A DNA stretch of 64,000 nucleotides from Actinomycetospora sp. NBRC 106375 (GTDB lineage: Bacteria; Actinomycetota; Actinomycetes; Mycobacteriales; Pseudonocardiaceae). The translations under genes and the position numbers were made by a program. Shown here piece by piece: positions 22,178 to 32,523 of the stretch. The stretch covers positions 186,001 through 250,000 of the forward strand of contig NZ_BSTS01000011.1 of the NCBI RefSeq assembly GCF_030269665.1, read 5' to 3'. Each line of letters begins with the position of its first letter. Position 1 is the first letter of the stretch. The notes beneath the pieces are model-generated. The model was not told where the DNA came from. It worked only from the letters and a program-made list of their open reading frames with translations, and did not search any database.

Positions 22178-22491
22178 TCGAGACCCTGCTCCTGCTCGGG
22201 TCGGTGCTGACCCAGGGCCTGTCCCTCGCCGCCATGCGGGCCTCGGACGGGCTGCGCCGGGCCCCGTGGTCGGCGACGGCGTTCCTCGCGATGGGGGCGT
22301 CGGTGCTGCTCATGTCCCGTGCCCTCGCGCTGGGGATGCCGCTGGCGGTCGGCTACGGCATCTGGAGCGGCGCCGGCATCGCCCTCGCGGCGACCACGGG
22401 CGCCCTCGTCTTCGCCGACCGTCTCGCGCGTGTCCACCTGGCCGGCCTGGCGCTGGTCCTTGCCGGGGTGCTGCTGGTCCACGGCGGGTGA
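22174..22491 (+). CDS. SMR-family partner subunit with Gln replacing the essential Glu
   Basis: A 105-residue, four-helix SMR protein. Aligned on the shared ASDG that follows helix 1, the essential Glu position is Gln (LTQGLSLAAMRASDG). The rest of the fold is normal (VGYGIWSGAGIALAATTG, LAGLALVLAGVLLV). It probably works only as a dimer with the upstream Glu-containing subunit. Its TGA stop is also the first three bases of the -35 element of the next operon's promoter. Confidence 0.88.
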   Translation: MIETLLLLGSVLTQGLSLAAMRASDGLRRAPWSATAFLAMGASVLLMSRALALGMPLAVGYGIWSGAGIALAATTGALVFADRLARVHLAGLALVLAGVLLVHGG

Positions 22492-22516
22492 ACCGTTCGG
22501 CCCTGCCGTCCGTGTC
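22489..22516 (+). promoter_or_regulatory. ECF-sigma promoter TGAACC-N16-CGTGTC of the sigma/anti-sigma operon
   Basis: A TGAACC -35 (22489-22494) and CGTGTC -10 (22511-22516) are separated by exactly 16 bases. As I recall it, this is the form reported for M. tuberculosis SigL promoters. It lies 39 bases before the membrane-protein start, so the operon containing the sigma gene is probably autoregulated. The same pattern occurs on the minus strand at 30252-30279. Confidence 0.75.
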
Positions 22517-22554
22517 CGAGGGGTGAGGGACCTACCACCGAGAGGACGACGCCC

Positions 22555-22953
22555 ATGGTCACCCACGCCGCCGCCGCACCCCGTGCCGTCGCCGCCCCGC
22601 TGACCGCGGTCCGGATCACCGCCGTGCTGTCGGTGATCGTCCTGGCCTGGCAGTTCGTCACCGCGGGCGCGCTGCTGCCGCGCGGCGGCCCGATCGGGCT
22701 GCACGCCACCGGCGCGATCGTGCTGCACGTCGTGCTCGGGCTGCTCGCGATCGCGGCGATCCTCTGGTCCCGCGCGGCCCGGGGCCCGTGGTGGCCCGCG
22801 GTCCTCGCGGTGGTCGTGTTCGTGCTGTCGTTCGCCCAGGCCTACGCGGGTGAGCACGGCATCCTCGCTCTGCACGTCCCGTGCGCCATGCTCCTCACCG
22901 TGGGCACGGTGTGGGTGGCCGCCTGGTCGTTCACCTCGGCCGCCCGGACCTGA
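22555..22953 (+). CDS. Four-helix membrane protein, unknown function, first gene of the ECF sigma operon
   Basis: A 132-residue protein with about four hydrophobic segments (VRITAVLSVIVLAWQFVTAG, GAIVLHVVLGLLAIAAIL, WWPAVLAVVVFVLSFAQAY, LHVPCAMLLTVGTVWVAAWS). It contains His residues in helices and resembles no family I can name with certainty. It starts 39 bases after the ECF-type promoter and ends 11 bases before the sigma factor gene, so it belongs to that operon. It could be a sensor or a target of the stress response. Confidence 0.78.
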   Translation: MVTHAAAAPRAVAAPLTAVRITAVLSVIVLAWQFVTAGALLPRGGPIGLHATGAIVLHVVLGLLAIAAILWSRAARGPWWPAVLAVVVFVLSFAQAYAGEHGILALHVPCAMLLTVGTVWVAAWSFTSAART

Positions 22954-22964
22954 CAGGGGGTGGG

Positions 22965-23477
22965 GTGACGTCCGAGGAGGATCTCATCCGGCTGCTCCAC
23001 GAGCGCCACGGCGCCGTGCTGTGGGCGGTCGCCCTGCGGACCACGTCCGACCCGGGGCGCGCGCAGGACGCGGTGCAGGAGACGCTGCTGCGCGCCTGGC
23101 GCCACCCCGACGCCCTCGACGAGAGCCGCGGCGACCCGCGTCCCTGGCTGCTGCGCACCCTGCGCAACGTGCTGATCGACGACTGGCGCGCCCGCTCGGC
23201 CCGTCCCGAGGTGCTCTACGACGACGTGCCCGAGGCCGGGGACCGCACCGTCGCCGACCACGCCGACGCCGCGGCGCAGACGTGGGTCGTGGCCGCCGCC
23301 CTGGCCCGGCTCACCCCGGAGCACCGCGCGGTCCTCGGCGAGTGCTACTACCGCGGCCGCACCGTGGGCGAGGCCGCGGCCGCGCTCGGCATCCCGCCGG
23401 GCACGGTGAAGTCGCGGACCCACTACGCGCTGCGCGCCCTGCGCCTGGTGCTCGAGGAGATGGGGGTGGGGTCATGA
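22965..23477 (+). CDS. ECF RNA polymerase sigma factor (SigL-like)
   Basis: A 170-residue group 4 sigma factor. Region 2 is LIRLLHERHGAVLWAVAL...AQDAVQETLLRAWRHP with the core-binding and -10 recognition parts (LLRTLRNVLIDDWRARSARP); region 4 is LTPEHRAVLGECYYRGRTVG...IPPGTVKSRTHYALRALR. The GTG at 22965 was chosen because upstream in-frame residues overlap the membrane-protein gene and do not look like sigma region 2. Its stop overlaps the anti-sigma start (ATGA). The operon's own promoter and that of the gene at 30196 have the same TGAACC/CGTGTC form, probably its recognition sequence. Confidence 0.92.
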   Translation: MTSEEDLIRLLHERHGAVLWAVALRTTSDPGRAQDAVQETLLRAWRHPDALDESRGDPRPWLLRTLRNVLIDDWRARSARPEVLYDDVPEAGDRTVADHADAAAQTWVVAAALARLTPEHRAVLGECYYRGRTVGEAAAALGIPPGTVKSRTHYALRALRLVLEEMGVGS

Positions 23478-24148
23478 GCTGCCGGCACCGGTTCGATGTC
23501 GGGGTCTACGTCCTCGGCGCCCTCGAGCCGGCGGAGCGCGAGGCGTTCGAGTCCCACCTGCCCGGCTGCGCCGACTGCGCGCGCTCGCTGGGCGAGGTCG
23601 CGGGGCTGCCGGGCCTGCTGTCCCGCGTGCCGGAGGGCGATCGCGACGCCGAGCCCCTCGCGGACCCGCCCCCGGACCTCCTCGCCGGCACCCTGCGCCG
23701 CGTGCGACGCCGTCGGCGGACGGCCTGGGTGCTCGCCGCGGCCGCGGTCGTCGTCGCGCTGCTCGGCGGCGGTCTCGTGGGCTGGGCGGTCCTCCCCGCC
23801 ACCACGGGCACGGCGGCGACCCCGCCCGTGCGCGAGATGGCCCTGCCGCCCGTCGCGGACTCGCCGTCGTCCGGTCTCGCCGACCTCACGGCGCGCCCGT
23901 GGGGCACCGAGATCGCGCTGAGCTGCCTCTACCACGGCGCGGAACGCCCACCCGCGCCTCCGGACGCCCCGCGCACCACGTACGTCCTGGTCGTGCGCGG
24001 GCCCGACGGCAGCGAGCAGCAGGTCGCCCGCTGGAGCCCGCCGCCGGACCAGGACGTCCGGGTCTCCGCGGCCACCGACCTCCCGCCGGACCGCGTGCGC
24101 GGGCTGGAGGTCCGCACCGCCGACGGCGCGACGGTCATGCGCTCCTGA
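23474..24148 (+). CDS. ZAS-type anti-sigma factor (RslA/RskA-like), membrane anchored
   Basis: A 224-residue regulator of the adjacent sigma factor. The N-terminal cytoplasmic domain has the zinc-binding H-x3-C-x2-C motif HLPGCADC. One transmembrane helix follows at about residues 78-102 (TAWVLAAAAVVVALLGGGLV), then an extracytoplasmic domain of about 120 residues resembling the RskA C-terminal fold. Thiol oxidation or zinc loss in the ZAS motif, or proteolysis, would release the sigma factor. The four-base overlap with the sigma gene ensures stoichiometric production. Confidence 0.92.
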   Translation: MSCRHRFDVGVYVLGALEPAEREAFESHLPGCADCARSLGEVAGLPGLLSRVPEGDRDAEPLADPPPDLLAGTLRRVRRRRRTAWVLAAAAVVVALLGGGLVGWAVLPATTGTAATPPVREMALPPVADSPSSGLADLTARPWGTEIALSCLYHGAERPPAPPDAPRTTYVLVVRGPDGSEQQVARWSPPPDQDVRVSAATDLPPDRVRGLEVRTADGATVMRS

Positions 24149-24159
24149 GCGCCCGGATC

Positions 24160-24204
24160 GGCCGCGGGGGCTCGGGACGGCGCGGATCCCGAGGCCTCGC
24201 GGCC
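24160..24204 (+). terminator. GC-rich hairpin ending the sigma/anti-sigma operon
   Basis: 18-base arms (24160-24177 and 24187-24204) pair with two mismatches around a 9-base loop, starting 12 bases after the anti-sigma stop. No U-run follows, which is common for actinobacterial terminators. Confidence 0.65.
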
Positions 24205-24224
24205 CGCTCGGCGAGACTGGGGGT

Positions 24225-24793
24225 GTGAGCGCGGCACCCAGCGACGACGGCTCGCGGGCGGGCGCGTGGCGGGCGTGGGCCCGCGGGCTGTTCCGCCTGC
24301 GTGGCGCGCGCTTCGACGGCGTCGATGCCGTGCGTGCGGGCGGCTGCGCCGGCGGGGTGGTGCTGATCGGGTGGCTGGCGCCCCCGGGCCCTGGTGGCGG
24401 CGACGTTGCGGGCCGCCGCTCGCGTGGTCCCGCACCTCGCCGACCGCAGCACGACTGGCCCGACGGCGCGCGGCGCGCCGGGACCTCAACCAGCAGGTCC
24501 TCGCCCTCGCCGACGCGCACCACGTCGGCGAGCTCGCCGCGCCTGTCCGGCCCGACCCCCGGACCACGCTGTGGTGGCCGGCCCTCGACACCACGCACCG
24601 CCTGGCCCACCGTGTCCTCGCGGCCTGCTGGGCGCTCGACACGACCGACGCCGGAGCCCTGCCCGCCGACCGCGCCGAGCGCCTCGTCGCCGAGCTCGAC
24701 GCGCTGGCGCGGGGGAGGGCGTCGGACCCCTCGGGCGCGGACGACTTCCTCGAGCCCGAGGTGGACGCCCTGCGCGGCTCCCTGCCGGGCTGA
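24225..24793 (+). pseudogene. Unknown protein gene with two apparent one-base insertions
   Basis: Three successive frames each have strong G/C third positions. Frame one (GTG at 24225) gives a start followed by RAWARGLFRLRGARFDGVDA and VVLIGWLAP. From about 24385 the next frame gives RALVAATLRAAARVVPHLADR. From about 24450 the third gives LARRRAARRDLNQQVLALAD and continues to a stop at 24793. Removing one C from the CCCCC run at 24381-24385, and one base near 24450-24458, yields a continuous protein of about 189 residues. I do not recognise the family; it is mainly helical with one hydrophobic stretch. It is convergent with the TetR gene, with three bases between stops. Either a pseudogene or sequence error. 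Confidence 0.5.
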
Positions 24794-24796
24794 GCG

Positions 24797-25339
24797 CTAC
24801 GGGCGCAGGCTCTCGACGACCAGGTCGAGCAGCCGCTCGGCCTGCTCGCGGCCGTCCTCCCCGGCCGGGACGCGCCACACGGCGCCCATGAGCAGCAGGA
24901 CGTCGTCGGGGTCGAGGCCGGGCCGCATGCTGCCGTCGGCCTCCCCGGCCCGCAGCAGCGTGGTGATCGCCCCGATCACCGGCCCGTAGGTCTCGGTGGT
25001 GGCGGCCGCGTGGTTCTCGGCCGTCAGCGCGTCCCCGAGACCCCGCTTGAGCCGGATGTACCCGGCCAGGATCGCGAACCAGGCCCGCAGGGCCACCAGC
25101 GGCGGCTCACGCTCGAGCAGCTCGGGCACCCGGTCGACCAGCCGTTGGACCTCGGCGCGGTAGACCGCGAGCACGAGGGCCTCACGGTGCGGGAAGTGCC
25201 GGTACAGCGTGCCGGCGCCGACCCCCGCCCGGCCCGCGATCGAGTTCAGCGACGCGTCGCCGTCCTCGGCCAGGGCCGCCGCGGCGACCTCCAGGATGCG
25301 CGCGCGGTTCTGGCGCGCGTCGCTGCGGGCCGGGGGCAC
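24797..25339 (-). CDS. TetR-family transcriptional repressor
   Basis: A 180-residue TetR regulator with the N-terminal HTH ILEVAAAALAEDGDASLN...AGVGAGTLYRHFPHREALV and an all-helical ligand domain. It starts at a GTG and is divergent from the aldo/keto reductase gene. Two near-identical palindromes in the gap are its likely operators, making it the repressor of the reductase operon and of itself. The ligand is unknown; an aldehyde or electrophile would fit the target. Confidence 0.92.
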   Translation of the reverse strand: MPPARSDARQNRARILEVAAAALAEDGDASLNSIAGRAGVGAGTLYRHFPHREALVLAVYRAEVQRLVDRVPELLEREPPLVALRAWFAILAGYIRLKRGLGDALTAENHAAATTETYGPVIGAITTLLRAGEADGSMRPGLDPDDVLLLMGAVWRVPAGEDGREQAERLLDLVVESLRP

Positions 25340-25363
25340 GGGTGCGGTCCACCTCCTCGCGAA

Positions 25364-25410
25364 GCGGAGAGTTCTCCGCTACGTTGGTCCTCGTACCGGA
25401 GAACTCTCCG
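25364..25410. promoter_or_regulatory. Two TetR operators, CGGAGA-N2-TCTCCG
   Basis: Palindromes GCGGAGAGTTCTCCGC (25364-25379) and CGGAGAACTCTCCG (25397-25410) share the core CGGAGA-NN-TCTCCG. Their centres are 32 bases apart, about three helical turns, so two dimers would bind the same DNA face. They lie between the divergent TetR and aldo/keto reductase genes. Confidence 0.85.
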
Positions 25411-25442
25411 ATTCATCCGACCACGATCCCGGAGGATCGGCA

Positions 25443-26492
25443 ATGGAGTACGTGAAGCTGGGGGCGACGGGTCTCGACGTCTCCCGGATCGCCATCGGCG
25501 CGATGACCTACGGCGAACCGGGCCGCGGGCACCCGGTCTGGTCGCTCGACGAGGAGTCGAGCCGGCCACTGATCAAGCACGCGCTCGACCGGGGGATCAA
25601 CCTCTTCGACACCGCGAACATGTACTCGCAGGGGTCGTCGGAGGAGATGCTGGGCCGCGCGCTGCGGGACTTCGCCGACCGCGACGACGTCGTGATCGCC
25701 ACGAAGCTGCGCCACCCGATGCGTCCCGGCCCCAACGGCAAGGGCCTCTCGCGCAAGGCCGTCCTGACGGAGGTGGACCACAGCCTGCGCCGCCTCGGCA
25801 CCGACTACATCGACCTCTACCAGGTGCACCGCAACGACCCGTCGACGCCGCTCGAGGAGACCCTCGAGGCGCTGCACGACGTGGTGAAGGCCGGCAAGGT
25901 CCGCTACCTGGGTGCGTCGTCGATGCACGCCTGGGAGTTCGCGAAGGCCCTGCACCTGCAGCGCGAGCACGGGTGGACCCGCTTCGTCGCCATGCAGGAC
26001 CACTACAACCTCCTCGCGCGCGAGGAGGAGCGGGAGATGCTGCCACTGTGTGCCGACGAGGGCGTCGGCACCGTCGTCTGGAGCCCGCTGGCGCGCGGAC
26101 GGCTCGCGCGGCCCTACGACGACGCCAGGGCCACCGCCCGGAGCGCCGACGACGGCGACTACGCCGACCTGCTCTACACCCCGGCCACGGCCGACGCCGA
26201 CCGCCGCATCCTCGACGCCGTCGGCGCGGTCGCCGCGGCGCGCGGCGTCTCCCGGGCGCAGGTCGCCCTCGCGTGGCTGCGCTCCCACCCGGTGGTCGTC
26301 GCGCCCCTCGTCGGCGCCAGCAGCGCCGCGCAGATCGACGAAGCCGTGGACTCCCTCGCCCTCGACCTCACCGACGAGGAGATCGCGACCCTGGAGACCC
26401 CCTACACCCCGCGGCACGACTTCCAGGGCATCTCCGACGACCGCGAGCTCCAGAGGATCATGGCGCGCGTCCCGGGGTTCGCCCCCGCCTGA
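25443..26492 (+). CDS. Aldo/keto reductase
   Basis: A 349-residue NADPH-dependent TIM-barrel reductase. The catalytic tetrad is Asp and Tyr in NLFDTANMYSQG, Lys in IATKLRHP and His in YQVHRND; cofactor binding involves SPLARGRLA and the C-terminal LVGASSAAQIDEAV. The family reduces aldehydes and ketones such as lipid-derived carbonyls. The ATG at 25443 follows GGAGG. It is controlled by the adjacent TetR operators and is followed, 13 bases on, by the SGNH hydrolase and alkylation-repair genes. Confidence 0.94.
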   Translation: MEYVKLGATGLDVSRIAIGAMTYGEPGRGHPVWSLDEESSRPLIKHALDRGINLFDTANMYSQGSSEEMLGRALRDFADRDDVVIATKLRHPMRPGPNGKGLSRKAVLTEVDHSLRRLGTDYIDLYQVHRNDPSTPLEETLEALHDVVKAGKVRYLGASSMHAWEFAKALHLQREHGWTRFVAMQDHYNLLAREEEREMLPLCADEGVGTVVWSPLARGRLARPYDDARATARSADDGDYADLLYTPATADADRRILDAVGAVAAARGVSRAQVALAWLRSHPVVVAPLVGASSAAQIDEAVDSLALDLTDEEIATLETPYTPRHDFQGISDDRELQRIMARVPGFAPA

Positions 26493-26505
26493 TAGATGTG
26501 GAGCC

Positions 26506-27285
26506 GTGCGGTACGCGGCGATCGGGGACAGCTTCACCGAGGGCGTCGGCGACGAGCGCGGCGACGGGGCGGTGCGCGGGTGGGCGGACCTCGTGGCCGC
26601 CGGTCTCGCCGCGGCCCGGGGCGCGCCGATCTCCTACGCCAACTTCGCGGTGCGGGGCCGGTTGCTCGACGACATCGTCACCGGCCAGCTGGACGCGGCG
26701 CTGGGTCTCGACCCGCCACCCACGCTGCTCACGCTCAACGGCGGCGGCAACGACATGCTGCGGCCCCACACCGACGTCGCGGAGCTCGCCGAGCGCACCG
26801 CCCCCGTGGTGCGCCGGTGCGCCGACGCCGGGGTGCGCCTCGTGCTGATCAGCGGCGCGGACCCGTCGGACCACATGCCCCTCGGTCGGGTCGTGCGCCG
26901 CCGCGGCGAGGAGCTGACCGCGCGCATCGCCGAGCTCGCCGCTGCCCACGACGTCACGTACGTCGACTGCTTCCACGACACCGAGCTGCACCGCCCGATC
27001 TACTGGTCGCCCGACCGCCTGCACCTCGGCCCGGCGGGCCACCGGCGCGCGGCCGGGCTGATCCTGCGCGGCATCCTCGGCGGCGGGGAGGTCCCAGCGA
27101 CCACCGGCAGCGACCTGCGCCGCGGTCCGCTCGCCCAGCTCCGCTACCACCGCGAGCACGTGCTGCCCTGGGTGGGCCGGCGGCTGCGCGGCGAGTCGTC
27201 GGGCGACACCGCCACCGCCAAGCACCCCGACTGGGTCACCGTGCCTGCCACGCGCACCGTGGCGGCGGGGTTCTCCGGAGCGTGA
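26506..27285 (+). CDS. SGNH/GDSL-family hydrolase
   Basis: A 259-residue esterase/lipase-like hydrolase without a signal peptide. Block I is YAAIGDSFTEGVGD (nucleophilic Ser), block III is TLNGGGNDML (Gly and Asn of the oxyanion hole) and block V is WSPDRLHLGPAGH (catalytic Asp and His). It starts at a GTG and its stop overlaps the AlkB-like gene (GTGA). Likely cytoplasmic deacylase or esterase activity; the substrate is not known. Confidence 0.9.
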   Translation: MRYAAIGDSFTEGVGDERGDGAVRGWADLVAAGLAAARGAPISYANFAVRGRLLDDIVTGQLDAALGLDPPPTLLTLNGGGNDMLRPHTDVAELAERTAPVVRRCADAGVRLVLISGADPSDHMPLGRVVRRRGEELTARIAELAAAHDVTYVDCFHDTELHRPIYWSPDRLHLGPAGHRRAAGLILRGILGGGEVPATTGSDLRRGPLAQLRYHREHVLPWVGRRLRGESSGDTATAKHPDWVTVPATRTVAAGFSGA

Positions 27286-27950
27286 CGTTCGAGCTGCTCC
27301 CGCGCGAGCGCCGGGAGCTCGCACCCGGCGCGGTGCACGTCCCGGACTGGCTCGGCCGCGACCGGCAGCGCTCCCTCGTCGACGCGTGCCGCCGCTGGGC
27401 GGTCGAGGGCCCGGGCATCCGGGCGGCGACGCTGCCGAACGGCGCGCGGATGAGCGTGCAGACCGTCTGCCTGGGCTGGCACTGGGTCCCGTACCGCTAC
27501 TCGCGCACCCGCGACGACCAGGACGGGTCGTCCGTCGCGGAGCTGCCCACCTGGCTCGCCGACCTCGGACGCGAGGCCGTGGCGACGGCGTACGACGACC
27601 CGGCCCTCGGCCGCGGCTACGCCCCGGACATCGCGCTGGTGAACCACTACACCGCCGACGCGAAGCTCGGGATGCACCGAGACTCCGACGAACGCGCGCC
27701 CGACCCCGTCGTGTCGTTCTCGCTCGGCGCGCCGTGCCTGTTCCGGCTCGGCAACCCGCACTCGCGCGGGCGCCCGTGGGCCGACGTCGAGCTGCGCTCG
27801 GGTGACCTGCTCGTGTTCGGCGACGAGAGCCGCCTCGCCTACCACGGCGTCCCGTCCGTGCTGGCCGACGACGACGGCGACGCCGCCGCGATCGGGCTCG
27901 CCGAGGGCCGGCTCAACATCACCCTGCGGGTGTCGGGGTTCGCGGCGTGA
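27282..27950 (+). CDS. AlkB-like 2OG/Fe(II) dioxygenase (alkylated nucleic acid repair)
   Basis: A 222-residue protein the length of E. coli AlkB. It carries the family pattern NHYTADAKLGMHRDSDE (substrate loop plus iron-binding HxD), the distal His in LAYHGVPS and the diagnostic RxNxTxR as RLNITLR. AlkB enzymes oxidatively remove methyl or etheno groups from bases such as 1-methyladenine and 3-methylcytosine. It overlaps the SGNH gene before it and the Ada-type zinc domain after it by four bases each, so these products are made together. Confidence 0.93.
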   Translation: MTFELLPRERRELAPGAVHVPDWLGRDRQRSLVDACRRWAVEGPGIRAATLPNGARMSVQTVCLGWHWVPYRYSRTRDDQDGSSVAELPTWLADLGREAVATAYDDPALGRGYAPDIALVNHYTADAKLGMHRDSDERAPDPVVSFSLGAPCLFRLGNPHSRGRPWADVELRSGDLLVFGDESRLAYHGVPSVLADDDGDAAAIGLAEGRLNITLRVSGFAA

Positions 27951-28171
27951 GCTACCGGCTGATCGGCGCGGACGGCCGCCCGTACAGCTCGGCCTCGCCC
28001 GGCACCCTCGGCGGCCACCGCCGTCTGAGGATCTACGGCCGGCTCGACTGCCCGAGCGCCCTGCGGTGGCTCGCCCGCGGCCACTACGCCCGCCACCGCG
28101 TCTTCTTCGCCGACGAGGCCACCGCCCGCGCCGCGGGGTACCGCCCCTGCCGGGTGTGCAGCGCACACTGA
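27947..28171 (+). CDS. Stand-alone Ada metal-binding domain protein
   Basis: A 74-residue protein consisting of only the Ada N-terminal zinc-binding fold: GRLDCPSALRW, HRVFFADEATARAAGYRPC and the terminal CRVCSAH supply the expected Cys pattern. In full-length Ada this domain accepts methyl groups from DNA phosphotriesters and turns Ada into an activator. Here it has no AraC-type HTH or methyltransferase domain attached. It overlaps the AlkB-like gene by four bases, so it may act with it as a DNA-alkylation sensor or repair helper (inference). Confidence 0.88.
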   Translation: MSYRLIGADGRPYSSASPGTLGGHRRLRIYGRLDCPSALRWLARGHYARHRVFFADEATARAAGYRPCRVCSAH

Positions 28172-28176
28172 GGGCC

Positions 28177-28929
28177 GTGGCGCGGTCGAGCTCGGGGGAG
28201 TCGGTGCTCGAGCGCGTCGTGCGCATCCTCGAGGCGTTCACCCCGGACACGCCGGCGCTGCAGATCTCGGAGGTCGCGCGTCGCGCCCGGCTGCCCGTCG
28301 CGACCGCGTCGCGGCTCGTCGCGGAGCTCGTGGAGCACGGCCTGCTCGCCCGCGACGACGACCGGCACGTGCGGATCGGCACCCGCCTGTGGGAGCTGGG
28401 CCTGCGCGCGTCGCCGACGCTGTCGCTGCGCGAGACCGCGATGCCGGTGATGGAGCAGCTCCTCGCGACGGTCGGCCACCACGCCCAGCTCGGCGTGCTC
28501 GACGGCGACGAGGTGCTGTTCGTCGAGCGCCTGTCCGCCGACCACGCGGTCATCAACATCACCCGCATCGCGGCCCGGCTGCCGCTGCACGCCTCGTCGT
28601 CCGGGCTCGTGCTGCTCGCCTACGGTTCGACGGTGCTGCAGGAGCGCATCCTCGGCACGCCGCGCCACCGCTACACGCCGGCGACGGTCTGCGAGCCCGG
28701 CCGGTTGCGCGTGCTCCTGGCCGAGGTCCGCAAGCAGGGCTTCGCGCTCTGCCCGGGCTTCATCCACCCCGACGCGACCGGCATCGCCGTCCCGATCCGC
28801 ACCGCGGACCGGCAGGTGATCGCCGCCGTCTCGGTGGTCGTCCCGAACGACGAGCGGGCGCGCGGCCACCTCGCGACGCTCACGGCGGCGGCACGCCGGA
28901 TCGAGCACCGTCTCGCGGACGCCCCCTGA
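28177..28929 (+). CDS. IclR-family transcriptional regulator
   Basis: A 250-residue IclR regulator: winged HTH SVLERVVRILEAFTPDTPAL...LPVATASRLVAELVEHGLL, then the effector domain with RLPLHASSSGLVLLAYG and the late ALCPGFIHPDATGIAVPI. The GTG at 28177 is five bases after the Ada-domain stop. IclR proteins often control aromatic-acid catabolism. It is convergent with the FAD monooxygenase gene and near the P450/reductase genes, which are likely targets. Confidence 0.92.
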   Translation: MARSSSGESVLERVVRILEAFTPDTPALQISEVARRARLPVATASRLVAELVEHGLLARDDDRHVRIGTRLWELGLRASPTLSLRETAMPVMEQLLATVGHHAQLGVLDGDEVLFVERLSADHAVINITRIAARLPLHASSSGLVLLAYGSTVLQERILGTPRHRYTPATVCEPGRLRVLLAEVRKQGFALCPGFIHPDATGIAVPIRTADRQVIAAVSVVVPNDERARGHLATLTAAARRIEHRLADAP

Positions 28930-28930
28930 G

Positions 28931-30196
28931 CTACCCCACCGCATCCCGGCGGGACGCGTCGTGCTCGCGCCGGCGGGCCCGCAGACCCCGACGCACTGAC
29001 GAGGCCCCGCGGCGCAGGCGCCGCAGGGCCGGCTGCTGGGTGGCGCGCAGCAGGTGCCAGCGCCAGGTCGGGGCGTCGCCGCGCCGTCGCCACAGCGACC
29101 ACGCGAGGTGGAGGTCGTCGACGGCGTCGCCCGGCCGCGCCGAGGACGTCGGCGCCGCGGACGGCCGGACGAGATCGGCGAACCACGCCGTGCTCCGGTC
29201 GGCCTCGTCCTGCAGCGGCGCCAGGACGGCCCGCCGCTCGGCCTCGTAGCCGGCGAAGGCCTCCGCGAGCGGGCCCTCGTCGGCCAGGCGGGCCCCGAGA
29301 GCCCGGGCGTCGCCGAGCGCGAGCGAGGTGCCCGAGCCGATCGTGAAGTGCGTGGTGTGGGCGGCGTCGCCGACCAGGACGAGGTTGCCGACGTGCCAGC
29401 GACCGAGCTCCACCCGCTGGAAGCGCGTCCACGGGGCGGGACGGTCGGGAGCGGGTCGCTGCGCCTCCGCCACCAGCAACGACTCCCCGTCGAGCAGGTG
29501 CGCGAACAGCTCCTCGAGGGCGCGCAGGCACGCCTCGACCGGCATCCGGTCGAGGCCGAGTGCCCGCCACGTCGGCTCCGGGCACTCGACGATGAAGGTG
29601 CTGCGGTCGGCGCGGAACGCGTAGGCGTGGCACCACATCCAGCCCGCGCCGGTGTCGACGAACCCGAAGGTGAAGGTCGGGAACCGCCGCGCGGTACCGA
29701 GCCAGATGTAGGGGTGCCAGGAGAGCGTCGCCCGGGCGCCGAGCGCGGCCTCGTGGGCGGCGCGCCGCGCGCTGTTGACGCCGTCCGCCGCGACGACGAC
29801 GTCGGCGCCCGCGAGCAGGTCGGGACCGGGGTCGGACGTCCCGAACCGGACGTCGACGTCGAGCTCGCGGGCCCGCGCGGTGAGCAGCCCGAGCAGCTCC
29901 TGGCGGCCCACCGCGTACCCGGACCCGCCGAGGAACACGGGCGCCCGCCGGCCCACCTGCAGCAGCTGGCCGTCCCAGACCTCCGCCGCCGCGCTCAGCG
30001 CCCGCGCCGAGACCGGGTCGTTCCGGTGCATCGTGTCGAGCAGGTCGTCCCAGAACACGACCCCCCAGCCGTGGGTGACCCCCGGCGGGTTGCGCTCCAC
30101 GACGACGATCTCGTCCCGCGCGCCCGCCAGCCGGGCGGTGATCGCCGTGTACAGCCCGGCCGGGCCGCCGCCCACGCACACGATCCGGCGCTCCAT
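28931..30196 (-). CDS. FAD-dependent monooxygenase, salicylyl-CoA 5-hydroxylase/anthraniloyl-CoA monooxygenase type
   Basis: A 421-residue class A flavin hydroxylase. Motifs are IVCVGGGPAGLYTAITARL (FAD), GWGVVFWDDLLDTM and VLVGDAAHTTHFTIGSGTSLA (second FAD motif). The GWGVVF and HFTIGSGT wording is characteristic of salicylyl-CoA hydroxylase and the N-terminal domain of 2-aminobenzoyl-CoA monooxygenase, which act on aryl-CoA thioesters. It lacks the C-terminal reductase domain of the bifunctional enzymes. The ATG at 30196 follows GGAGG. A perfect ECF-type promoter lies about 55 bases upstream, which would place it in the stress sigma regulon. Confidence 0.9.
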   Translation of the reverse strand: MERRIVCVGGGPAGLYTAITARLAGARDEIVVVERNPPGVTHGWGVVFWDDLLDTMHRNDPVSARALSAAAEVWDGQLLQVGRRAPVFLGGSGYAVGRQELLGLLTARARELDVDVRFGTSDPGPDLLAGADVVVAADGVNSARRAAHEAALGARATLSWHPYIWLGTARRFPTFTFGFVDTGAGWMWCHAYAFRADRSTFIVECPEPTWRALGLDRMPVEACLRALEELFAHLLDGESLLVAEAQRPAPDRPAPWTRFQRVELGRWHVGNLVLVGDAAHTTHFTIGSGTSLALGDARALGARLADEGPLAEAFAGYEAERRAVLAPLQDEADRSTAWFADLVRPSAAPTSSARPGDAVDDLHLAWSLWRRRGDAPTWRWHLLRATQQPALRRLRRGASSVRRGLRARRREHDASRRDAVG

Positions 30197-30251
30197 CCGA
30201 CCTGCCTCCCCGGTGCACGGCCCGGCCGCCGCCCGCGGCCCTCCACCTCTG

Positions 30252-30279
30252 GACACGGAGCCCGGGACCCGCGGGTTCA
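30252..30279 (-). promoter_or_regulatory. Second TGAACC-N16-CGTGTC promoter, before the FAD monooxygenase
   Basis: On the minus strand, TGAACC (30279-30274), a 16-base spacer and CGTGTC (30257-30252) repeat exactly the promoter of the sigma/anti-sigma operon at 22489. It points toward the monooxygenase start at 30196 with a leader of about 50 bases. Confidence 0.72.
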
Positions 30280-30301
30280 CCGCTCGTCTCCCATTGGATG
30301 A

Positions 30302-30312
30302 GAACGCCGTTC
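30302..30312. promoter_or_regulatory. Small palindrome GAACG-C-CGTTC in the aromatic-module divergent promoter region
   Basis: A perfect 5-1-5 palindrome 23 bases upstream of the ECF-type -35 and 56 bases before the reductase start. It could be an IclR site. Arms are short, so this is only a candidate. Confidence 0.3.
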
Positions 30313-30367
30313 CGCCGACTCGGCCCCGCCCGTCACCGTCACCGGCAGCTCGACGGAGGAGGCGGAT

Positions 30368-31309
30368 GTGGAGAGCGACCGGCTCGTGGTCGTCGCGAAG
30401 GAGCCCGCGGCGGACGACGTGGTGACGCTGGTGCTCGCCCGGCCCGACGGGGGTCGGCTGCCGGACTGGGCGCCGGGAGCGCACATCGACGTCACGCTCC
30501 CGACCGGCGCGACGCGGCAGTACTCGCTCTGCGGCGACCGCTGGGACGCGCACACCTACCGGATCGGCGTGCTGCGCGAACCCGCCGGCCGTGGCGGCTC
30601 GGCCTACGTGCACGACGAGCTGGACACGGGCGACCTCGTCGCCTTCGGCGGGCCGCGCAACGACTTCGCGATGGTGCCCTCGCCCCGCTACCTGTTCGTC
30701 GCGGGCGGCATCGGGATCACGCCGTTGCTGCCGATGATCCACCAGGCGGATCTCGTCGGGGCCGACTGGTCGCTGCTCTACGGCGGCCGGCGCCGCGGTT
30801 CGATGGCGTTCGTCGGCGAGCTCGCCCGCTACGGCGACCGCGTCCACGTCCGGCCCGAGGACGAGCACGGCCTGCTGCCGCTCGCCGCCTGGCTCGGGGA
30901 CGCCGACGACGACACCGTCGTCTACTGCTGCGGTCCGGCCCCGCTGCTGGACGCCGCCGAGCGCGCGGCGGCGCACCGGCCGCGCCACCGCCTGCGCACC
31001 GAGCGCTTCACCGCCCCCGAGCTGGGCGCCCCGGTGCGCGACGCGCCGTTCGAGGTCGAGCTGGCGCGCACGGGCACGACGGTGACGGTGCTGCCGCAGG
31101 GCACGGTGCTCGACGCCGCACGCCGCGTCGGGGCGACCGCGCTGTCCTCGTGCGAGCAGGGCCTGTGCGGCACCTGCGAGACCACGGTGCTCGCCGGTGT
31201 CCCCGACCACCGCGACTCGATCCTCGCCGACCACGAGCGCGCCGCCGGCGACTGCATGTTCCCGTGCGTGTCCCGGTCGTGCACCGACCGTCTCGTGCTC
31301 GACCTCTAG
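30368..31309 (+). CDS. Phthalate-dioxygenase-reductase-type oxidoreductase (FMN, NADH, 2Fe-2S)
   Basis: A 313-residue single-chain electron-transfer protein. The flavin domain has RQYSLCGD, the nucleotide domain YLFVAGGIGITPLLPMI and VVYCCGPAPLLDA, and the C-terminal plant-type 2Fe-2S domain has the Cys pattern SSCEQGLCGTC...C. Order (flavin, NAD, ferredoxin) matches VanB/PDR reductases. The GTG at 30368 follows GGAGGAGG. Eight bases separate it from the P450 gene, so it is almost certainly the P450's redox partner. Confidence 0.93.
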   Translation: MESDRLVVVAKEPAADDVVTLVLARPDGGRLPDWAPGAHIDVTLPTGATRQYSLCGDRWDAHTYRIGVLREPAGRGGSAYVHDELDTGDLVAFGGPRNDFAMVPSPRYLFVAGGIGITPLLPMIHQADLVGADWSLLYGGRRRGSMAFVGELARYGDRVHVRPEDEHGLLPLAAWLGDADDDTVVYCCGPAPLLDAAERAAAHRPRHRLRTERFTAPELGAPVRDAPFEVELARTGTTVTVLPQGTVLDAARRVGATALSSCEQGLCGTCETTVLAGVPDHRDSILADHERAAGDCMFPCVSRSCTDRLVLDL

Positions 31310-31317
31310 GAGAGCCC

Positions 31318-32523
31318 ATGACCACGACGGCACCCGCCATCCCGGTGAACCACGTCGACCCGTTCTCACCCGAGGTGCTCGAGGACCCCCTGCCGTTCCA
31401 GCACGCGCTGCGCGAGGCGGGGCCGGTGGTGCACCTGGCGCAGCACGACGTGTACGCGATGGGCCGCTACGAGCATGTCCGCGCGGCGCTGGTCGACTGG
31501 CAGCGCTTCCCGTCCGGCGCCGGTGTCGGGCTCGCGAACTGGCGCTACGAGAAGCCGTGGCGCCCGCCGAGCCTGCTGCTCGAGACCGACCCGCCCCACC
31601 ACGACGCGCCCCGTGCGGTGCTCGCCCCGATCCTGTCGCCGCGGGCGCTGCGCCGGCTGCGTGAGCAGTGGTGTACCGAGGCCGAGACCCTCGTCGACGA
31701 GGTCCTGGCGAGCGGTCCCGAGGTCGACGCCATGTCCACGCTCGCCGAGGCCTTCCCGCTGCGCGTCTTCCCCGACGCCGTCGGGATCCCCCGCGAGGGT
31801 CGCGAGCACCTGCTGCCCTACGGCGACCACCTGTTCAACGCCTTCGGCCCCGAGAACGCGCTGGTCGCGAAGGGCGCGCCGACGCTGCCCGAGCACGCGG
31901 GGTGGGTGAACGCGCAGTGCGCCCGCGACCGCCTCGCCGAGGGCGGGTTCGGCGCGCAGATCTGGGCGGCCGCCGACCGCGGTGACATCACCCCGGAGCA
32001 GGCCCCGCTCGTCGTCCGCTCGTTGCTGTCCGCCGGCGTCGACACCACGGTGCACGGGCTGGGCGCCTGCCTGTCCGCCATGGCCACCCATCCCGAGCAG
32101 TGGGCGCGGCTGCGCGCACAGCCCGGCCTGGCGCGCGTCGCCTTCGACGAGGCGGTGCGCTGGGAGTCGCCGGTGCAGACGTTCTTCCGGATCGCCGACG
32201 TCGACGTGTCCGTGGGCGGCACCGTCGTGCCCGAGGGCCGCAAGATCCTCATGTTCCTCGGCTCGGCGAACCACGACCCGCGGCGCTGGGACGCCCCGGA
32301 CGTTTTCGACCTCGACCGCGACCCCTCCGGCCACGTCGGGTTCGGCATGGGCCTGCACCAGTGCGTCGGCCAGCACGTGGCCCGCCTCGAGGCGGAGGCG
32401 CTGCTGACCGCCCTGGCTCGCCGGGTGGAGCGGATCGCACCGGCCGGGACGCCGCGCCGGCACCACAACAACACGATGCGGGGCTGGGAGTCCCTCCCGG
32501 TGCGGCTGGTGCCCGCCGTCTAG
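31318..32523 (+). CDS. Cytochrome P450, CYP199A-like (para-substituted benzoate O-demethylase)
   Basis: A 401-residue soluble P450. The oxygen-activation helix has SAGVDTTVHG, the ExxR is EAVRW, and the heme Cys lies in FGMGLHQCVGQ. Many segments (WRPPSLLLETDPPHHDAPRA, FPLRVFPDAVGIPREGREH, SPVQTFFRI, LMFLGSANHDPRRW, NNTMRGWESLPV) match, from memory, CYP199A2 and CYP199A4, which demethylate 4-methoxybenzoate and oxidise other para-substituted benzoates. Known CYP199A enzymes use a separate ferredoxin and reductase; here the gene follows a fused PDR-type reductase by eight bases. The ATG has AGGAG upstream. Confidence 0.93.
   Translation: MTTTAPAIPVNHVDPFSPEVLEDPLPFQHALREAGPVVHLAQHDVYAMGRYEHVRAALVDWQRFPSGAGVGLANWRYEKPWRPPSLLLETDPPHHDAPRAVLAPILSPRALRRLREQWCTEAETLVDEVLASGPEVDAMSTLAEAFPLRVFPDAVGIPREGREHLLPYGDHLFNAFGPENALVAKGAPTLPEHAGWVNAQCARDRLAEGGFGAQIWAAADRGDITPEQAPLVVRSLLSAGVDTTVHGLGACLSAMATHPEQWARLRAQPGLARVAFDEAVRWESPVQTFFRIADVDVSVGGTVVPEGRKILMFLGSANHDPRRWDAPDVFDLDRDPSGHVGFGMGLHQCVGQHVARLEAEALLTALARRVERIAPAGTPRRHHNNTMRGWESLPVRLVPAV

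What the first reader, a model, noticed from the sequence alone, without database searches (positions are those of the whole stretch)
22489..30279. ECF sigma factor with a matching promoter on its own operon and on a distant flavin monooxygenase
TGAACC-N16-CGTGTC occurs exactly twice in intergenic DNA: at 22489-22516, before the membrane protein/sigma/anti-sigma operon, and on the minus strand at 30279-30252, about 55 bases before the salicylyl-CoA-hydroxylase-like gene. Both are correctly oriented. A 12-base exact match with fixed spacing is rarely expected by chance in 64 kb. This predicts a SigL-like autoregulated sigma factor whose regulon includes an aryl-CoA monooxygenase, an unusual target for a ZAS-type stress response.
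Basis: partly seen in the sequence, partly recalled or inferred. Interest (0 to 1): 0.7.

Follow-up and report, generated by a model that had tools for sequence, protein, structure and literature searches.

The report
SigL-type sigma factor and its promoters
A known kind of stress-responsive sigma factor in a soil bacterium controls its own operon and probably also switches on a flavin monooxygenase gene that, in this genome, sits with its promoter inside an otherwise unbroken three-gene cassette; a modest but testable case of a stress regulon picking up a new gene.

Summary
TGAACC-N16-CGTGTC occurs exactly twice in the window, at the stated places, and five times in the 6.79 Mb genome; the other three lie inside genes by my gene caller. 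The sigma factor is a SigL homologue, the next gene an RslA-like ZAS anti-sigma factor. Site 1 is a real autopromoter by footprinting: 6 of 6 genus genomes with this sigma (own included) and 19 of 19 further family loci keep GAACC-N16-CGTG there, while flanks diverge. Site 2, 55 bp before the monooxygenase, is the second-best fit in the window to a matrix trained on relatives' autopromoters. But it is not conserved: 0 of 13 genus homologues and 0 of 71 wider relatives carry the core, and the count of N16 matches is not itself outstanding (spacers 7 and 28 give as many). The monooxygenase with site 2 lies between an IclR gene and a box + reductase + P450 operon that directly follow IclR in 11 of 11 other genus loci examined (11 of 17 other genomes). 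Best reading: autoregulated SigL plus one lineage-specific recruited target (0.70). The 'salicylyl-CoA' substrate and thiol stress are inferred. A new member of a known kind.

The parts
22489..22516 (+). SigL-type promoter (TGAACC-N16-CGTGTC) of the membrane protein-sigL-rslA operon; its first TGA is also the stop of the upstream SMR gene
   Evidence: kept in 6 of 6 sigma-bearing genus genomes, own included, and in 19 of 19 family loci outside the genus with at most 2 mismatches
22555..22953 (+). small membrane protein, first gene of the operon; no family above cut-off
   Evidence: kept in 6 of 6 genus loci
22965..23477 (+). ECF sigma factor, SigL homologue
   Evidence: NF007227 215.2 bits, cut-off 202 (13); PDB 6dv9 SigL E 1.3e-41 (15, 68)
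23474..24148 (+). RslA-like anti-sigma factor: zf-HC2 with H28-x3-C32-x2-C35, hydrophobic stretch after about residue 82 (by eye)
30252..30279 (-). second SigL-type promoter; start predicted at about 30243, 47-nt leader (inferred)
28931..30196 (-). FAD monooxygenase (resembles VioD and the N-terminal half of salicylyl-CoA hydroxylase)
28177..28929 (+). IclR-family regulator (PcaR/PobR-like, below that model's cut-off), next to the reductase-P450 operon in relatives
30290..30313 (+). conserved box CCCATTGGATGAGAACGCCGTTCC, putative IclR operator, 10 bp from the second SigL -35
   Evidence: 12 of 12 loci within 4 mismatches of the chosen consensus; only place in the window with up to 7 mismatches
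30368..31309 (+). FNR-type reductase with C-terminal 2Fe-2S domain
31318..32523 (+). cytochrome P450

Best explanation
The operon 22555-24148 is a SigL/RslA system. The anti-sigma factor holds SigL; on thiol oxidation (as shown for RslA of M. tuberculosis) it loses zinc and lets SigL go. SigL then transcribes from GAACC-N16-CGTG promoters: its own operon (22489-22516) and, in this genome, the FAD monooxygenase (30279-30252, minus). The monooxygenase with its promoter lies between an IclR gene and the box-reductase-P450 operon that directly follows IclR in relatives, most simply through an insertion, so that one oxygenase came under stress control while the adjacent operon kept its own box. Shown here: identity of the parts, the conserved autopromoter, the match quality of the second site, the different gene order. 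Inferred: that SigL uses the second site, the redox signal, the direction of the change (insertion rather than loss elsewhere), the substrate.
For: SigL identity: PDB 6dv9 E 1.3e-41 over residues 3-168; SigL His54, which sets -12 specificity (PMC6372665, passages), aligns with His47, and Asp60 with Glu53 (by eye). Autopromoter: GAACC-N16-CGTG invariant in the 22 relatives' sites aligned. Second site: a matrix from 21 unique relatives' sites gives 25.8 bits (site 1) and 22.1 (site 2), next best in the window 14.1, best in 58 other own-genome loci scanned 16.6; cmsearch 19.0 and 16.1, next 9.0. On the 26 positions outside the two hexamers it ranks 6th of the 23 exact N16 sites of the genus; 2.4% of window positions do as well (two of the five above it were in the training set). 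Gene order: in 11 of 11 other loci the box begins -2 to 70 bp from the aligned end of IclR, here 1,364 bp, and none of the 11 has the GAACC-N16-CGTG core in the roughly 500 bp before the reductase.
Against: No relative of the monooxygenase carries the site: 0 of 13 other genus homologues and 0 of 71 of the 75 GTDB loci have the core in 300 bp upstream (four loci with no or partial 5' end dropped; three of the 71 are also among the 13). With up to 2 mismatches 2 of 71 do, fewer than for control spacers (4 and 4). G006, G010 and G016 have both sigma and homologues (44-60%) without the site; the own 65% paralogue lacks it. The number of N16 matches in the genome is not outstanding (N7 has 6, N28 has 5), and 13 of 33 control hits are intergenic too. 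The non-core score of site 2 is -0.02 bits, neutral in absolute terms (site 1: 3.5), and a genic site, L002, is only 4 bits lower. Genome-wide the model's E-value is 0.10, with 150 of 16,086 candidates scored, and a C16 site with a 2-base shorter spacer scores higher (17.1) though no same-strand gene follows in the 1.5 kb held. No transcript data.
Confidence: 0.7

Rival explanations
1. The second site is a chance match; the monooxygenase is driven by the IclR-type box next to it or by the housekeeping sigma factor, together with the divergent reductase-P450 operon.
For: The conserved box lies 10 bp from the -35, in the shared 171-bp gap; the site is on no homologue; its spacer holds a perfect 10-bp palindrome ACCCGCGGGT (49), which could be an operator; other spacers give as many matches in the genome, many of them intergenic; model E-value genome-wide 0.10.
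Against: Only 3 of 33 control-spacer hits lie promoter-like, that is within 150 bp before a same-strand start, which makes about 0.1 per spacer and genome; the whole 38-base stretch fits SigL promoters 8 bits better than any other place in the window but site 1.
Confidence: 0.22
2. Another ECF sigma factor of this genome uses the second site; SigL serves only its own operon.
For: The first look gave 72 candidates for sigma-like stretches in the genome, so cross-recognition is possible.
Against: Only one passes 1e-30; the nine exact N16 sites in the 12 genus genomes without a sigma hit all have non-core scores below -10.
Confidence: 0.05
3. The system is decaying and neither motif is used any more.
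For: No sigma at 1e-30 in 12 of 18 genus genomes (two of the 12 are under 90% complete).
Against: Sigma and anti-sigma reading frames are intact here and the autopromoter is kept in all six sigma-bearing genomes.
Confidence: 0.02

Closest known systems
SigL-RslA of Mycobacterium tuberculosis (PDB 6dv9, 3hug)
   Same: Sigma aligned over nearly its whole length; anti-sigma with H-x3-C-x2-C; CG-T-G -10 with C or A at -9, as in the SigL consensus of PMC6372665 (passages); direct autoregulation of SigL is stated in PMC10449499 (passage).
   Different: A membrane protein gene leads the operon here; the second target is a FAD monooxygenase, not pks7-pks10 or Rv1138c-Rv1139c (PMC13002591, passage) or the mpt53 operon (PMC2806251, passages). 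Rv1138c is listed as an oxidoreductase; whether it resembles our enzyme was not tested.
Salicylyl-CoA 5-hydroxylase/oxidoreductase (NF006101) and VioD (NF053547)
   Same: FAD monooxygenase part, residues 4-344; E 7.4e-95 (13); PDB 3c4a E 2.4e-30 (14)
   Different: Below both curated cut-offs; lacks the oxidoreductase half of the salicylyl-CoA enzyme
IclR-controlled aromatic oxygenase cassettes (PcaR/PobR type; recalled as a kind)
   Same: IclR gene next to oxygenase genes, conserved box in the gap
   Different: Here a divergently transcribed gene with a different promoter type stands between them; that IclR binds the box is not shown

Membership tests
SigL (ECF sigma, NF007227 subfamily) | Sequence above curated cut-off, regions 2 and 4 | tested here: met
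   215.2 bits, cut-off 202 (13); Sigma70_r2 and r4 (12). The model's own name is only 'sigma-70 family'; SigL rests on PDB 6dv9 (15)
SigL | -10 specificity residues His54 and Asp60 | tested here: inconclusive
   His kept (His47); Asp60 aligns with Glu53, with Asp52 beside it (68, by eye)
SigL | Adjacent anti-sigma factor and autoregulatory promoter sequence | tested here: met
   Overlapping reading frames; promoter conserved. Transcription itself not tested
RslA / ZAS anti-sigma | H-x3-C-x2-C zinc motif | tested here: met
   H28, C32, C35 invariant in the 7 aligned
RslA | Redox release of zinc and of sigma | not testable with these tools
   Shown for M. tuberculosis RslA (PMC2877774, abstract and passages)
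NCBIfam anti-sigma equivalog NF052375 | Curated cut-off | tested here: not met
   44.3 bits, cut-off 100 (13); so called RslA-like, not that equivalog
Salicylyl-CoA 5-hydroxylase (NF006101) | Curated cut-off and both domains | tested here: not met
   318.6 of 1078 bits, positions 2-344 of 768 (13)
SigL regulon member (monooxygenase) | SigL-dependent transcript | not testable with these tools
   Sequence evidence only

The most novel reading that the evidence does not exclude
A thiol-stress sigma factor acquired a cytosolic flavin monooxygenase as its only strong target besides itself in this genome, when the gene together with a SigL promoter entered an IclR-reductase-P450 cassette that is unbroken in the 11 other genus loci examined; the shared 171-bp gap then lets two control systems (SigL and the IclR-type box) meet back to back, so that stress and substrate jointly set two oxygenases.
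Probability: 0.35. Interest if true: 0.5.

Novelty: new member of a known kind. Interest (0 to 1): 0.35.

Why it matters
If true, it is a clear snapshot of how an ECF regulon keeps its autoregulatory core and swaps its targets: the autopromoter is held over a family, while the best secondary sites seen in sigma-bearing genus genomes precede different genes (a monooxygenase here, a Ser/Thr kinase in G010, a CDP-alcohol phosphatidyltransferase in G011, an unassigned gene in G006). The prediction is small, precise and cheap to test.

Tried and rejected
Rejected: that the other exact genomic matches extend the regulon (three of three lie in genes). Rejected: an N-terminal extension of the monooxygenase through the promoter (coding score -11.1; alignments with relatives begin at residue 2-4 in nearly all). 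Rejected: that the monooxygenase is a conserved SigL target. Found wanting: the count of N16 matches against other spacers and the reversed-pattern control, which is poorly matched, since sigma-less genus genomes also show 12 forward against 2 control hits. My core scan used a spacer of 17 by mistake and missed even the known site; corrected. The gene caller is home-made (codon log-odds) and wrongly marked site 2 as genic. One search was given 22 of the 24 non-own autopromoter sites; L082 and L084 were left out as near-copies of L079. Order level: 29 loci fetched of 111 genomes with a hit; best match within 1 mismatch of TGAACC/CGTGT in 23 of 29, N16 among the best in 21; spacers 12-20 over 1,500 bp were allowed and no chance control was made; three loci on short contigs were scanned whole. 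Paper searches: ECF sigma with Actinomycetospora, 0 papers; SigL, monooxygenase, RslA, two of three, 16 listed, none about such a target by title and abstract start; motif letters, 20 of 21,432 listed, nothing usable; ECF19/SigL/promoter motif, 20 of 36 listed, nothing usable; Rv1138c with oxidoreductase and FAD, 1 paper; two SigL regulon searches. Papers seen as passages only: PMC6372665, PMC13002591, PMC2877774, PMC10326535 (53, not used), PMC10449499, PMC2806251. Hahn 2005 and Dainese 2006 are not held, so TGAACC as the literature -35 is recalled.
Full report
What is there. Site 1 (22489-22516, +) precedes three genes read in one direction: a small membrane protein, an ECF sigma factor and a zinc-finger anti-sigma factor whose start overlaps the sigma stop. 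Site 2 (30252-30279, -) ends 55 bp before ATG 30196 of an FAD monooxygenase.

Identity of the regulators. The sigma passes NCBIfam NF007227 (215.2 bits, cut-off 202) and its best solved relative is M. tuberculosis SigL (6dv9, E 1.3e-41). The anti-sigma has H28-x3-C32-x2-C35, invariant in seven aligned relatives, and its only solved relative at E 0.001 is RslA (3hug_B, E 3.5e-9). For RslA, oxidation joins the CXXC cysteines, frees zinc and lowers affinity for SigL eight-fold (PMC2877774, abstract and passages). The redox signal is inferred, not shown, for this pair.

Site 1 is a promoter under selection. A sigma hit at 1e-30 occurs in 6 of 18 genus genomes (three genomes of the genus are under 90% complete). 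In all six, own included, TGAACC-N16-CGTGT[CA] stands 476-547 bp before the aligned sigma start and just before the membrane protein, while the flanks differ. Of 297 family genomes 25 have a relative at 1e-50, the six included; in 17 of the 19 loci outside the genus the site is found with at most one mismatch, always N16, and in the other two (L078, L081) with two. GAACC-N16-CGTG is invariant in the 22 aligned. At order level 21 of 29 fetched loci have an N16 site within one mismatch of TGAACC/CGTGT among their best (without a chance control).

Site 2, for. A matrix trained on 21 unique relatives' autopromoters, own site left out, scores site 1 at 25.8 bits, site 2 at 22.1 and the next best place in the window at 14.1; the best in 58 other own-genome loci is 16.6. 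A cmsearch model gives 19.0, 16.1 and 9.0 in the window. Outside the two hexamers, site 2 ranks 6th of the 23 exact N16 sites found in the genus; the six best are all in sigma-bearing genomes, and the other 17 (nine from genomes without a sigma hit; 16 of the 17 in genes) score lower (L062 and L066 were also in the training set; the caller marks site 2 as genic). Of 33 control-spacer hits only 3 lie within 150 bp before a same-strand start, so about 0.1 chance promoter-like match per spacer and genome.

Site 2, against. The five N16 matches in the genome are not outstanding in number: 6 at N7 and 5 at N28, and 13 of the 33 control hits are intergenic by my caller. The non-core score of site 2 is -0.02 bits, neutral in absolute terms, against 3.5 for site 1 and -4.0 for the genic site L002. 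Over the whole genome its model E-value is 0.10 (150 of 16,086 candidates scored); a C16 site with a spacer two bases shorter scores 17.1, with no same-strand gene in the 1.5 kb held after it. Of 14 monooxygenase places in the genus only the window's own has the core upstream; of 71 GTDB relatives (75 found, four dropped for missing or partial 5' ends; three of the 71 are also genus places) none has; with two mismatches allowed 2 of 71 have something, fewer than control spacers (4 and 4).

Why it is not conserved. No relative of the monooxygenase above 65% identity was found in these searches. The neighbouring reductase, in contrast, has a 70-85% relative in 16 of the 17 other genus genomes. 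In all 11 loci fetched besides the own (11 of those 17 genomes) an IclR gene lies before it, with a box like CCCATTGAATGAGAACGCCGTTCC (at most 4 mismatches) in the gap; from the aligned IclR end to the box it is -2 to 70 bp there and 1,364 bp here. A P450 relative is present in each (the order was seen in 8). The monooxygenase and site 2 thus fill a stretch found only in this genome among those examined, beside the box at 30290-30313; an insertion is the simplest reading, loss in the others is not excluded.

What the regulon looks like elsewhere. In 14 of the 19 sigma-bearing family genomes outside the genus there are 96 exact TGAACC-N16-CGTGTM sites against 9 for the reversed pattern, 10-12 in each of the five genomes of genus g16; the reversed pattern is a poor control (12 against 2 even in genus genomes without sigma). 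Of the 96, 30 loci were fetched: 12 sites in genes, 18 between genes, 11 of these with a start within 200 bp. Six of the 11 products were scanned: secreted repeat lipoprotein, VTT-like (below cut-off), Rieske, DUF3455, two without a family. Within the genus the best secondary sites precede a Ser/Thr kinase (G010), a CDP-alcohol phosphatidyltransferase (G011; start about 117 bp on, with a short open frame between) and an unassigned gene of uncertain start (G006).

Mechanism and verdict. Most likely: an autoregulated SigL-RslA switch whose second strong promoter in this genome drives a newly placed monooxygenase, 0.70. The main rival is a chance site beside an IclR-type operator, 0.22. The enzyme's substrate is unknown: it fails the salicylyl-CoA hydroxylase cut-off. 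The finding is a new member of a known kind with one lineage-specific twist.

Noticed in passing
window 28177-32523 and L238-L248: IclR - box - reductase - P450 cassette in 11 of 11 other genus loci examined; only the window has a gene between IclR and the box.
   Followed up: yes
window 22555-22953; L073-L091: A membrane protein gene leads the sigL operon in 6 of 6 genus loci and an open frame of similar size and look in the six family loci inspected, but tblastn finds no similarity between the genus version and any of the 19 family loci.
   Followed up: partly
L300, L310 (also G031:C1:4314311, G069:C90:103440): In two other genera a second SigL-type site faces away from the sigL operon (coordinates); after L310 comes a Rieske-type protein (77), after L300 one that looks alike by eye (75): perhaps a bidirectional SigL promoter.
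   Followed up: partly
L269, L276, L277, L286 and others of genus g60: SigL relatives there have TGAACC-N16-CGTAT instead of CGTGT before the sigma gene, a natural shift of the -10 element.
   Followed up: no
G000:C15:166137, C30:47519, C43:71: The same stretch TGAACCTACGACGGCGTGTC near three contig ends, probably one repeated element that broke the assembly.
   Followed up: no
L244, between IclR and the box: A long inverted repeat (GTGAGCGAAGTTCCCGGC...GCCGGGAACTTCGCTCAC) between the IclR gene and the box, not seen by eye in the other loci printed.
   Followed up: no
G000:C13:160081-161319: A 65% paralogue of the monooxygenase in the same genome, without a SigL site.
   Followed up: partly
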